Of a stretch of DNA of 24,216 bases, positions 400 to 3,028 are shown piece after piece. The DNA lies in IMG/VR virus record IMGVR_UViG_3300028596_000066, positions 1-24,216 of that record. The stretch is one strand, 5' to 3'. The first letter of the stretch is position 1. Every line of letters starts with the position of its first letter. A program made the translations under genes and the position numbers. Source of the DNA: a virus. The notes beneath the pieces were generated by a model that searched no databases, had not been told where the DNA came from, and saw only the letters and a program-made list of their open reading frames with translations.

Positions 400-594
400 T
401 CAGCCGACGTCCGGTTCGCAGGCGAGTAGCTCGCTGCCCCGCTGCTCGTACCACTCGGCAACGGCGGCTTGGACGACGGCACGGAGTTCGTCGGCTACAT
501 CGTCGGCGTACATCTGCTCGCCGTCCTTGACGGGCAGGTGCTCGGAGGAGTGGGCGGTGAAGCCGACACTGAAGGACATGTGCGTCTTACTCAC
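400..594 (-). CDS. Small acidic protein of unknown function (64 aa)
   Basis: I chose the GTG start at 594 because it overlaps the stop of the upstream gene as GTGA and has a GGGGAG ribosome-binding site about 6 nt upstream. The ATG at 579 (59 aa) is possible but has a poor site. The product has an N-terminal SFSVGFTAHSSEHL segment and a helical acidic part containing DDVADELRAVVQAAV. No signal peptide or membrane segment is seen. It is the last leftward gene of the run and lies downstream of the lysis genes. I do not recognise a family. Confidence 0.6.
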   Translation of the reverse strand: MSKTHMSFSVGFTAHSSEHLPVKDGEQMYADDVADELRAVVQAAVAEWYEQRGSELLACEPDVG

Positions 595-911
595 GCGGGC
601 TCCCCATCCGGGAAATGCGGCCGGAGCGGCCAGTGGGGCGTGAACGTCGCGTCCGCGTTGTCCAGCAGCCACAGGCCGGGCTTGTCCGGATACGCCTCAC
701 GGAACGGCGCAGGTGTGGCCACCCGGTCGCGGCGGCCGATCGTCTCCGAGCGGATCACGCCGTCGTCCCATGCCTGCCGCCACTCGGCGTCGAGCACACG
801 CCGTCGCCACGGCAGCAGCGCATTCAGCGGCTCGTCCTGCTCAGCCATGATGAGCGGGATGTTGCGGTAGTAGGTCCCGTCGGCGTTTTGGAACCAGGCG
901 CGGCGCATCAT
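591..911 (-). CDS. Tryptophan-rich protein of unknown function (106 aa)
   Basis: This soluble-looking protein has six tryptophans in 106 residues (RRAWFQNADG, LPWRRR, EWRQAWDDG, GLWLLD, HWPLRPH). An early 'W-x-N-x-D-G-T-Y' segment and an LLDNADATF segment resemble the beta-strand edges of small phage minor tail or fibre-associated proteins, but this is only a resemblance. Two adjacent ATGs (911 and 908) could start it. It lies 30 nt after the collagen-like gene and its stop overlaps the GTG of the next gene, so it is translationally coupled to that gene. It could be a tail fibre assembly factor or a post-lysis accessory protein; I cannot decide. Confidence 0.6.
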   Translation of the reverse strand: MMRRAWFQNADGTYYRNIPLIMAEQDEPLNALLPWRRRVLDAEWRQAWDDGVIRSETIGRRDRVATPAPFREAYPDKPGLWLLDNADATFTPHWPLRPHFPDGEPA

Positions 912-941: not shown

Positions 942-1598
942 CTACGCGTATTGGGTGCGTCGAGGATCCAACCCCAGTAACCCCGACCCGCCGCTCCCGT
1001 TCCCCGGCCCCGGATCCGGCGCCCCATCCCGCCTACACACCAGCGCATCCGGGTCATACGACGGCGCCTGCAACGAGTACCCGTCCGGGCACGTCTGCCC
1101 ATCCACACCGTCCTGGCCGTCTGACCCCGCAGGACCAGGCTCACCCTGAGGGCCCGCCGGGCCCGGCTCACCCTGAACACCCCGCGATCCCGTAGGCCCG
1201 ACCGCGCCCGGCTCGCCACTCGCCCCCGGACTCCCCGCCACACCATCCTTGCCCGGCGCCCCAGACGCCCCCGGCGAACCCGACGGACCAGGCGGCCCCG
1301 GAATCGGCACCGGCACCTCCGCGCGATCCGGGAGATCCTCCACCGCTTTCGCTGGATCGGGAGCCACCGGCGTCTTGCCCTCAGCTTTCACTTGCTCCCG
1401 CAGCGCCCGCACATCCCCCGCCAGCGTGCTCACCGCAGTCCCCCGCAAATCCGCCTCGGCAGCCAACTGGTCGGCACGCCGGTCCGAGGCATCGATACGG
1501 TGCCACGTCGCCCACGCAATGCCGAACAGAGCGACGATCGCACACAGGGTGGCGATGCCGCGCCAGTGCTGGACGATCGTGCGCTCAGTCCGCGTCAT
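942..1598 (-). CDS. Membrane-anchored collagen-like protein (218 aa)
   Basis: Residues 14-32 ([19 protein letters not shown]) form one hydrophobic segment after a short basic N-terminus, predicting a signal anchor with the rest outside the cytoplasmic membrane. Residues 36-72 are heptad-like and charged, a probable coiled coil. Residues 101-169 are 23 consecutive Gly-X-Y triplets without interruption, rich in GEP, GPA and GAS. A short CPDGYSLQ motif at 170-177 pairs with Cys188, perhaps as a disulfide. The tail is Gly/Pro-rich. The ATG at 1598 overlaps the upstream stop as ATGA. Collagen-like triplets usually build trimeric rods in phage fibres; here the membrane anchor and the place after the endolysin and holin suggest a role in lysis or in the host envelope. 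No known lysis protein has this exact layout as far as I can tell. Confidence 0.9.
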
Positions 1599-1855
1599 GG
1601 GTTCGGTGTTCCTCCGAGTCGGATGTTCTCTATCTCAAGCTGCGTGATCCTGACGAGGTAGTCGTGGCGCTGCTGCTCCAACGCCGCGATCTGTACGTCC
1701 TTCTCGGCAAGGCGCCGCGCCAGGCCGTCGCGCTCCTCCTGGACCTGGTCCGTCAGCGAGTTCGCGTTCTCCCCGCGTTTGCCGATGTACGCCACCACCG
1801 AGCCGGACAGAACACCGACACACGCGAGGACCGCGCCGAGGGTGGTGGCGTCCAA
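1595..1855 (-). CDS. Small membrane protein with coiled coil (86 aa), holin-like or lysis accessory
   Basis: The start is TTG at 1855, preceded by GAGGAG at about 6 nt; no better start is seen. Residues 1-25 hold one hydrophobic segment ([21 protein letters not shown]). Residues 30-80 are a strongly charged helix with leucines and isoleucines in heptads ([23 protein letters not shown]), a coiled coil. It lies 10 nt after the holin candidate and overlaps the collagen-like gene by 4 nt. One transmembrane segment plus a coiled coil is common in accessory proteins of actinophage lysis cassettes. It may be a second holin, an antiholin, or a partner of the collagen-like protein, whose N-terminal half has the same design. 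Confidence 0.85.
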
Positions 1856-2068: not shown

Positions 2069-3028
2069 TCAGTTCTCCTTCGTGAGTGCGTCGCCGAGCC
2101 GGTCCAGCGCCGCCTCAGCCCCGGCCTGAGCAGCCGCCTGGATCTCCGATGCGTCCAGCCCGCCACCCTCGGCGAGCTTCCCCACAGCAGCGCTCAGCGC
2201 GGCCACCTGAGCCGTCAGCGCAGCCGTCGCCTTATCCACCCTGCGGCCCACAATCTCCGTGTTCCGCACCGCCGTCGCCAGCGAGATGAACGGATTCACC
2301 GAGACGGTGTCCGTGTTGGGGTTGGCGATGATCCCGTCGATCGTCAGGACCCTCTTCGCGACCTTCGTCGCGTCGTCGTCGGACAGTGGCACGTCGTCCT
2401 CCTCGGGGACGGTCTGGCCCTTCGCGAGGGCGAGCAGTCGGGTGAAGTCGATGGCGCCCGGGTCGCCGTGCACGTTCTCGGGAACGTGCATGTGGCCGCA
2501 GATGCCCTTGAACGCCTCCCACTGGGCGCCGGTCATCCGCTGTCCGCCGCCGTTCGCGTAGGACGTGGGGTATGCCGGCCAATTCGAAGGCCCGACGAGC
2601 GGGACGTCGTGTTCGGTGTTCAGCCACTTCAGGAAGGTGGCCAGTTCGGCGAGCGCCCAGTCAGGGGCTTCCGGCCAGTAGATGTGCTCAGCCGAACCCC
2701 AGTTGCGGTGGGTCGCCGGGTCGCACGTCCCCACGAGCTCGACCTGCACGACGTTCAGCGTGTTCGTCTCCACCCCACCACTGAGGTTGACCAGCGCGCG
2801 GGATGAGCGGTCGATGTCGAAATGCTGGAACCAGCGCAGCTTCCGGGCGGCGAAGTCCGGGACCGCGGTGAGGTTCGGCGCCGACCCGCCCCCGCCGTAG
2901 TCCGGCAGCGACCGGCCCTCGGTGGTGTGCAGGACGACGACGTTGACCTCCATCACATCGCCGCCGAACCGGTTCTGGTAGAAGTACGCCGTCGAGGCGC
3001 CCGGATACTTCTGCAAGCCAGCGGCCAT
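2069..3028 (-). CDS. Endolysin, N-acetylmuramoyl-L-alanine amidase (319 aa)
   Basis: The N-terminal 200 residues match the amidase_2/PGRP fold that cuts the bond between muramic acid and L-alanine in peptidoglycan. A zinc-binding His34 lies in VVVLHTTEG; the second metal site is in GHMHVPENVHGDPGAID, with His181 and Asp189 as likely ligands. The middle (Gln95-Glu97) has the VQVELVG strand usual in this family. Residues 215-319 are a separate C-terminal region with a heptad-like stretch (VDKATAALTAQVAALSAAVGKL, near 264-285) and an alanine-rich helix, probably for wall binding or oligomerisation; no known wall-binding repeat is visible. The ATG at 3028 overlaps the upstream stop by 1 nt, and longer upstream starts would only extend into the previous gene. 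Confidence 0.93.
   Translation of the reverse strand: MAAGLQKYPGASTAYFYQNRFGGDVMEVNVVVLHTTEGRSLPDYGGGGSAPNLTAVPDFAARKLRWFQHFDIDRSSRALVNLSGGVETNTLNVVQVELVGTCDPATHRNWGSAEHIYWPEAPDWALAELATFLKWLNTEHDVPLVGPSNWPAYPTSYANGGGQRMTGAQWEAFKGICGHMHVPENVHGDPGAIDFTRLLALAKGQTVPEEDDVPLSDDDATKVAKRVLTIDGIIANPNTDTVSVNPFISLATAVRNTEIVGRRVDKATAALTAQVAALSAAVGKLAEGGGLDASEIQAAAQAGAEAALDRLGDALTKEN

What the first reader, a model, noticed from the sequence alone, without database searches (positions are those of the whole stretch)
942..1598. Membrane-anchored collagen-like protein in the lysis cassette
The protein combines a signal anchor, a coiled coil, 23 uninterrupted Gly-X-Y triplets and a Cys-framed C-terminal cap. 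Collagen repeats are usual in phage fibres but a membrane anchor is not. It is translationally coupled to a small anchor-plus-coiled-coil protein and sits just after endolysin and holin. It might form a stiff trimeric rod projecting from the membrane into the thick wall, a possible envelope-spanning lysis or wall-disruption part.
Basis: partly seen in the sequence, partly recalled or inferred. Interest (0 to 1): 0.68.

Follow-up and report, generated by a model that had tools for sequence, protein, structure and literature searches.

The report
Membrane-anchored collagen rod in lysis cassettes
Phages and prophages of Streptomyces, and in a related form Arthrobacter phages, carry beside their cell-bursting genes a protein that looks like a membrane-rooted collagen rod with a small disulfide tip; databases call it a tail fibre, but its conserved anchor, its gene neighbours and one published virion analysis of a relative suggest it works at the host envelope, probably during lysis.

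Summary
ORF 942-1598(-) encodes 218 aa: N-in transmembrane anchor, helical stalk, 23 uninterrupted Gly-X-Y triplets (20,000 shuffles reach at most 8), a two-Cys cap and a conserved LDPxRRxY tail, behind endolysin, holin and an overlapping one-TM coil gene. All 109 complete distinct homologues keep the anchor, even those fetched with the cap alone; generic phage collagens mostly lack one. SF3, Kromp and OnionKnight show the same gene order. Arthrobacter phages carry an analogous pair directly before the endolysin. For Arthrobacter phage ArV2, published LC-MS/MS of virions lists 14 proteins but not this one, though it was annotated a tail fibre. Stalk and collagen lengths compensate (rho -0.79), giving an estimated reach of about 32-36 nm. 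Stalk type matches the upstream partner's type (75/75 versus 0/34) while endolysins mix freely. Best reading: a membrane-anchored, probably trimeric rod acting as an accessory envelope or lysis factor, topologically like LysZ; the 'minor tail' annotation is probably wrong. Expression, localisation and function are untested.

The parts
942..1598 (-). Membrane-anchored collagen-like rod protein, 218 aa
   Evidence: ORF; Pfam Collagen 3e-16; phrog_1806 E 2.6e-34; 109 complete distinct homologues with the same layout
1503..1559 (-). Transmembrane segment, aa 14-32 ([19 protein letters not shown]), N-in
   Evidence: KD19 1.87; all 109 homologues >= 1.77, and all 109 have more positive charge before than after the TM
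1383..1502 (-). Helical stalk outside the membrane, aa 33-72
   Evidence: AlphaFold2 helix 3-72; L66, Q69 and G74 invariant
1299..1382 (-). Proline-rich linker aa 73-100 ending in VPVPIP
   Evidence: Conserved in the long-stalk subfamily
1092..1298 (-). 23 uninterrupted Gly-X-Y triplets, aa 101-169
   Evidence: shuffles reach at most 8
1035..1091 (-). Cys-framed beta-hairpin cap, [19 protein letters not shown], aa 170-188
   Evidence: Both Cys 100% conserved; hairpin pLDDT about 87
948..971 (-). C-terminal LDPxRRxY motif, aa 210-217
   Evidence: RR or RK within the last 8 residues in 108 of 109 homologues
1610..1615 (-). Likely ribosome-binding site GGAGGA of the collagen gene
1595..1855 (-). 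Small one-TM coil protein (86 aa), N-out/C-in; overlaps the collagen start by 4 bp (ATGA)
   Evidence: Charge bias consistent in 75/75 relatives and -4 overlap in 69/75; LysF1b-like topology (PMC13056207)
1866..2066 (-). Probable two-TM holin, 66 aa
   Evidence: Sequence; same position as the annotated holins of SF3, Kromp and OnionKnight. No confident family hit of its own
2069..3028 (-). Endolysin
   Evidence: phrog_1493 endolysin E 5e-13; no Pfam or NCBIfam hit

Best explanation
A late phage protein of the lysis cassette. The N-terminal TM, a predicted uncleaved signal anchor, fixes it in the cytoplasmic membrane with the rest outside. The stalk and Gly-X-Y repeats probably trimerise into a stiff rod of roughly 32-36 nm. 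The disulfide cap and the LDPxRRxY tail at the far end reach into the cell wall and bind a wall or membrane-anchored polymer. There the rod acts as an accessory release factor, helping the holin and endolysin disrupt the envelope or free progeny, as proposed for LysZ. A partner with a cytoplasmic coil, translated from the overlapping gene, probably works with it across the membrane. Shown by sequence: anchor, topology bias, repeats, conservation, gene order, partner matching, and the length pattern from assumed rises per residue. Shown by others: absence of a related protein from the LC-MS/MS list of ArV2 virions. Inferred: expression, trimer, ligand and lysis role.
For: Anchor in 109/109 complete distinct homologues even when searched by the cap alone, N-in charge bias 109/109. 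In a control of generic phage collagens, 4 of 25 have a weak hydrophobic stretch (<= 1.77, two of them signal-peptide-like) and none above 1.8; the family median is 2.43. Gene order endolysin-holin-small TM-collagen in SF3, Kromp and OnionKnight; an endolysin linked by phmmer within 1.6 kb upstream in 35 of 39 diverse representatives. Arthrobacter phages: small N-out TM, then N-in anchored rod, then endolysin, the rod overlapping the endolysin by 4 bp in 6 of 7. ArV2 gp20 is not in the LC-MS/MS virion table, while gp24 fibre and the other tail proteins are, although gp20 offers 9 tryptic peptides of 7-30 aa. Long-stalk rods go with N-out partners 75/75 and short-stalk rods 0/34, while endolysins up to 81% identical occur with both types. 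Stalk and rod lengths compensate, rho -0.79, total CV 6% against 15% and 35% for the parts.
Against: PHROGs and several annotators file the family as tail fibre or minor tail, and the lysis genes follow tail genes, so gene position alone is ambiguous. No experiment exists on any Streptomyces member that I could find. The ArV2 paper contradicts itself in one sentence about gp20, and non-detection can be technical. The length compensation is mainly one contrast between two subfamilies; within subfamilies it is weak. Partner matching may partly reflect the overlap of the two genes. Four of 39 representatives had no endolysin found by this method. Topology comes from charge bias and hydropathy only.
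Confidence: 0.6

Rival explanations
1. It is a virion tail fibre or minor tail protein, as PHROGs and several deposited annotations say, with an N-terminal hydrophobic helix that inserts in the tail or the membrane during assembly.
For: phrog_1806 'collagen like minor tail' E 2.6e-34; Kromp gp28 and Arthrobacter gp21/22/24 annotated minor tail; collagen repeats are common in tail fibres; tail genes lie just upstream.
Against: N-in TM anchor in all 109 complete homologues and in 7/7 Arthrobacter rods, unlike most generic phage collagens. ArV2 gp20 was not in the MS table while the real fibre gp24 was. The gene follows the holin in Streptomyces phages and is bound by overlap to a TM gene. P. acnes phage gp19, a collagen predicted to be a tail protein, lies before the amidase gene.
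Confidence: 0.15
2. It is a surface-display protein rather than a lysis factor: the receptor-binding-like cap is shown on the infected or lysogenic cell to exclude superinfecting phage, to stop progeny re-adsorbing to debris, or to change surface adhesion.
For: Many carriers are temperate phages or prophages; about 21% of sampled Streptomyces genomes carry it. Caps are modular: an alternative Streptomyces cap resembles Arthrobacter caps and two cap types alternate between Arthrobacter rods. Weak similarity, in the repeats only, to collagen-like adhesins.
Against: The position within the lysis cassette and the overlap with the endolysin in Arthrobacter argue for late expression; no own promoter was recognised (weak evidence). 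The cap was not found on another protein of the window nor on a TM-less protein in the top 80 viral hits.
Confidence: 0.17
3. It is itself a type III-like holin: one TM with a large outer domain like T4 protein T, whose oligomers make the membrane lesion.
For: One TM, N-in/C-out, lysis cassette; T4 T is 218 aa with the same topology (PMC9671378).
Against: A separate two-TM holin candidate and an N-out LysF1b-like protein are already present. The outer part is an extended rod, not the globular domain described for T.
Confidence: 0.05

Closest known systems
LysZ of Corynebacterium phages CL31 and Cog (McKitterick, Lyerly and Bernhardt, doi 10.1073/pnas.2606687123; described in PMC13056207, original paper not readable here)
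   Same: One TM, N-in/C-out, a lysis protein, about 180-220 aa, Gram-positive actinobacterial host, large outer domain
   Different: No collagen repeats are mentioned for LysZ in the text read; LysZ is proposed to act on lipoarabinomannan of mycolate bacteria, while Streptomyces and Arthrobacter lack a mycolate layer (own knowledge). Sequence relation was not tested.
i-spanins (Rz type)
   Same: N-in TM with outer coil, in the lysis cassette; weak profile hits (phrog_214 E 0.013; Caulobacter BL198 i-spanin E 0.4)
   Different: No outer membrane and no o-spanin lipoprotein partner; the rod is collagen rather than only coil
LysF1b of mycobacteriophages Girr and NormanBulbieJr (PMC13056207)
   Same: Matches the upstream partner gene 1595-1855: one TM, N-out/C-in, charged helical cytoplasmic tail, ATGA overlaps between cassette genes
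   Different: It is the partner, not the rod; no anchored rod is described for those phages in the text read
phrog_1806 and phrog_18350 ('collagen like minor tail', 'tail fiber protein')
   Same: Sequence family membership; these profiles cover the stalk, the repeats and, in some members, the TM
   Different: Their functional label is not supported by the anchor, the neighbourhood or the ArV2 virion table
Transmembrane collagens of animals (MACIT type, e.g. collagens XIII, XVII; own knowledge)
   Same: Type II anchor, coil next to the membrane, collagen rod outward
   Different: No homology claimed; resemblance of layout only

Membership tests
LysZ-type lysis proteins | Single N-in/C-out TM protein | tested here: met
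   Charge bias 109/109, predicted only
LysZ-type lysis proteins | Encoded with the lysis genes | tested here: met
LysZ-type lysis proteins | Sequence homology to LysZ | not tested
   LysZ sequence was not retrieved; original paper not held
LysZ-type lysis proteins | Deletion gives small plaques, relieved on hosts lacking the target glycopolymer | not testable with these tools
   Needs phage genetics
Spanins (Rz/Rz1) | N-in TM with outer coil | tested here: met
   (predicted helix; coiled-coil oligomer not modelled)
Spanins (Rz/Rz1) | Outer-membrane lipoprotein partner or unimolecular equivalent | tested here: not met
   No lipoprotein-like gene seen by eye among the cassette genes; hosts have no outer membrane (own knowledge)
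Phage collagen tail fibres | Collagen Gly-X-Y repeats | tested here: met
Phage collagen tail fibres | Present in the virion | tested here: inconclusive
   Relative ArV2 gp20 absent from the LC-MS/MS table (PMC4205034), but the text is inconsistent and no Streptomyces member has been examined
Phage collagen tail fibres | Lacking a membrane anchor, as most generic phage collagens do | tested here: not met
   Anchor in 109/109 against a weak hydrophobic stretch in 4 of 25 controls
LysF1b-like proteins (for partner gene 1595-1855) | One TM, N-out/C-in, charged helical cytoplasmic tail | tested here: met
   Charge pattern in 75/75 relatives; description in PMC13056207

The most novel reading that the evidence does not exclude
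Actinobacterial phages encode a class of trans-envelope release machine: a membrane-anchored collagen or collagen-like rod of set length, matched to a cytoplasmic-coil membrane partner. It would carry exchangeable disulfide caps to wall polymers about 30-40 nm away, a Gram-positive counterpart of spanins built from collagen and hidden in databases as minor tail proteins.
Probability: 0.35. Interest if true: 0.85.

Novelty: new variant of a known kind. Interest (0 to 1): 0.66.

Why it matters
Gram-positive phages are not expected to need spanins, yet LysZ suggests that membrane-anchored release factors exist. This would add a widespread form with a collagen architecture, present in about a fifth of sampled Streptomyces genomes and in an analogous form in Arthrobacter phages. 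It would correct an annotation copied through public databases (collagen = tail fibre). It also makes a question directly testable: whether the rod's reach and cap determine wall disruption in thick-walled hosts. Some carriers (Kromp, OnionKnight) grow on Streptomyces lividans, a laboratory strain.

Tried and rejected
Virion fibre reading: tested by looking for TM-less homologues with cap-only searches, by a control of generic phage collagens, and by published virion proteomics; not favoured. Cap shared with tail fibres: the main cap was found only on anchored proteins among the best 80 viral hits; the alternative cap gave 6 viral loci (not all analysed) and Arthrobacter anchored rods. Spanin homology: only weak hits (E 0.013 and 0.4), not claimed. 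Cap homology to solved structures: none (best E 1.6). Endolysin against solved structures: none. Sigma-70 promoters and terminators in the region: none found, uninformative in a high-GC actinophage. Length rule: strong across all 39 representatives but mostly between two subfamilies, so kept as suggestive. The LysZ paper could not be read (not held), so that comparison rests on PMC13056207. Papers on collagen-like proteins together with phage lysis gave nothing on this layout. A PDB fold search of the model was not run because the model is mostly one helix plus low-confidence collagen.

Full report
Observation. The ORF at 942-1598 on the minus strand encodes 218 residues exactly as described. 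A hydrophobic segment (aa 14-32) follows a basic N-terminus. A helical stalk follows (AlphaFold2 helix 3-72), then a proline-rich linker, 23 uninterrupted Gly-X-Y triplets (aa 101-169), a cap framed by Cys170 and Cys188, and a C-terminal LDPRRTQY. Shuffling the residues 20,000 times never gave more than 8 triplets in a row, and the window has no other long collagen run. The start overlaps the stop of 1595-1855 by 4 bp and has a GGAGGA site upstream. Upstream lie a probable two-TM holin (1866-2066) and an endolysin (2069-3028, phrog_1493 E 5e-13). The whole 24-kb window is a viral record with a tail-then-lysis gene order.

Conservation. Searches with the full protein and, separately, with the cap alone gave, after removing duplicates, 109 complete distinct proteins. 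One further protein is cut by a contig end. All 109 have an N-terminal hydrophobic segment (19-residue mean hydropathy at least 1.77, median 2.43), 15-38 triplets and both cap Cys; 108 end in the RR-type motif. All 109 have more positive charge before than after the segment, predicting N-in/C-out. Eight loci (one of them the window's own copy) fell outside this set because their cap differs from the pattern used or they are truncated; those read (for example L057, L076, L080) also show the hydrophobic segment. As a control, collagen-like proteins in viral contigs found only through Gly-X-Y similarity were examined. Of 25 usable ones, 4 have a weak hydrophobic stretch (1.71-1.77), two of these signal-peptide-like, and none exceeds 1.8. 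The anchor is therefore a property of this family and not of phage collagens in general. The family is found in 42 of 199 Streptomyces genomes and in 7 of 395 genomes of a class-wide sample; the seven loci of the genome-collection scan were all named Streptomyces.

Neighbourhood. In SF3 the order is endolysin, holin, 'hol-like chemotaxis', collagen. Kromp and OnionKnight have endolysin, holin, a further small gene, and the collagen gene overlapping that gene. Among 39 representatives below 66% identity, 35 have an endolysin linked by phmmer within 1.6 kb upstream. The other four were scanned: one (L056) has a poly-gamma-glutamate hydrolase or phosphodiesterase-like ORF there, and no endolysin was identified in L034, L077 or L153. 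The gene directly upstream comes in two forms. One is N-out/C-in with a cytoplasmic coil (75 loci, charge pattern 75/75, 4-bp overlap in 69). In the loci of the other form that were read, it has a C-terminal TM and a coil in the cytoplasm. The first goes with long-stalk rods (75/75), and none of the 34 short-stalk rods has it. Endolysins do not follow this split: pairs up to 81% identical occur with both. The stalk and the partner therefore travel together, although the gene overlap may account for part of this.

Second host genus. An alternative cap found in a few Streptomyces-type members (L080 type) led to Arthrobacter phages. In Sarge, PeggyLeg03, Ryan, BrayBeast, MrSmee, Popper and ArV2 a small N-out TM protein is followed, with 4-8 bp overlap, by an N-in anchored rod, then by the endolysin. 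The rod overlaps the endolysin by 4 bp in six and by 82 bp in ArV2. The rods mix short Gly-X-Y runs with helical two-Cys repeats, except in ArV2, which is mostly collagen; two cap types alternate. These proteins are annotated minor tail, tail fiber or, in PeggyLeg03, membrane protein. A 2025 note on two related Arthrobacter phages counts the small TM gene and the endolysin as the lysis cassette (PMC12716707).

Published virion data. The ArV2 paper (PMC4205034) lists 14 virion proteins by LC-MS/MS of CsCl-purified particles. ORF20, the anchored collagen, is not in that table and is stated as not detectable; the fibre ORF24 and tail proteins 15-18 are listed. Another sentence of the same paper says gp20 was detected, so the source is inconsistent. 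ORF20 would yield nine tryptic peptides of 7-30 residues, so low digestibility alone is not an obvious reason for absence.

Reach. Assuming 0.286 nm per residue for the collagen and 0.15-0.20 nm for the stalk, long-stalk rods average 32-36 nm and short-stalk rods 33-35 nm. The total varies by about 6%, against 15% for the collagen and 35% for the stalk alone; rho between stalk and collagen length is -0.79 across 39 representatives. Within each subfamily the trend is weak, so this is suggestive of a length requirement, not proof.

Mechanism and rivals. Anchor, topology, neighbours, partner matching and the ArV2 table point to a membrane-anchored rod acting at the envelope late in infection. The nearest functional parallel is LysZ, a one-TM N-in/C-out protein of corynebacteriophages proposed to act on membrane-anchored glycopolymers (as described in PMC13056207). 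The upstream partner resembles LysF1b of mycobacteriophages, whose deletion impairs lysis. Virion fibre, surface display or exclusion, and type III holin remain as rivals with lower weight. Membership in LysZ or in spanins is not claimed: sequence relation to LysZ was not tested, and the outer-membrane partner of spanins is absent.

Verdict. The 'minor tail' label in databases is probably wrong for this family. Function awaits virion proteomics and a deletion in a laboratory phage and strain.

Noticed in passing
L001 8019-8546 (SF1) against L002 8025-8663 (SF3): SF1 and SF3 share this region, but SF1's record annotates a reverse-strand ORF (SF1_450) in place of the collagen gene, probably a gene-calling error.
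   Followed up: yes
L214 5001-5777 (phage ArV2 gp20; PMC4205034): The ArV2 paper contradicts itself on gp20: one sentence says detected in the virion, another and Table 2 say not.
   Followed up: partly
L210-L213, L215, L216 (Arthrobacter rods): Rods built of short Gly-X-Y runs alternating with about 25-residue helical two-Cys repeats (P-x-A-E-x-V-x-A-A-V...C...C-x-G-P-x-G), an unusual mixed rod design.
   Followed up: partly
window 1595-1855 and the short-stalk loci (e.g. L059, L084): Two unrelated-looking partner genes (N-terminal TM N-out, or C-terminal TM) occupy the same slot; in both the coil is predicted cytoplasmic.
   Followed up: yes
L057, L076, L080, L204, L205: A second cap type (PSGWTFTDGTG..C..YTC) replaces the CPDGY cap in a few members and resembles Arthrobacter caps, pointing to cap exchange.
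   Followed up: partly
window 2069-3028: The endolysin has no Pfam, NCBIfam or solved-structure match and is recognised only by PHROGs.
   Followed up: partly
window 591-911 and 400-672 (minus strand): Small uncharacterised ORFs follow the collagen gene; 591-911 has no Pfam or PHROG hit.
   Followed up: no
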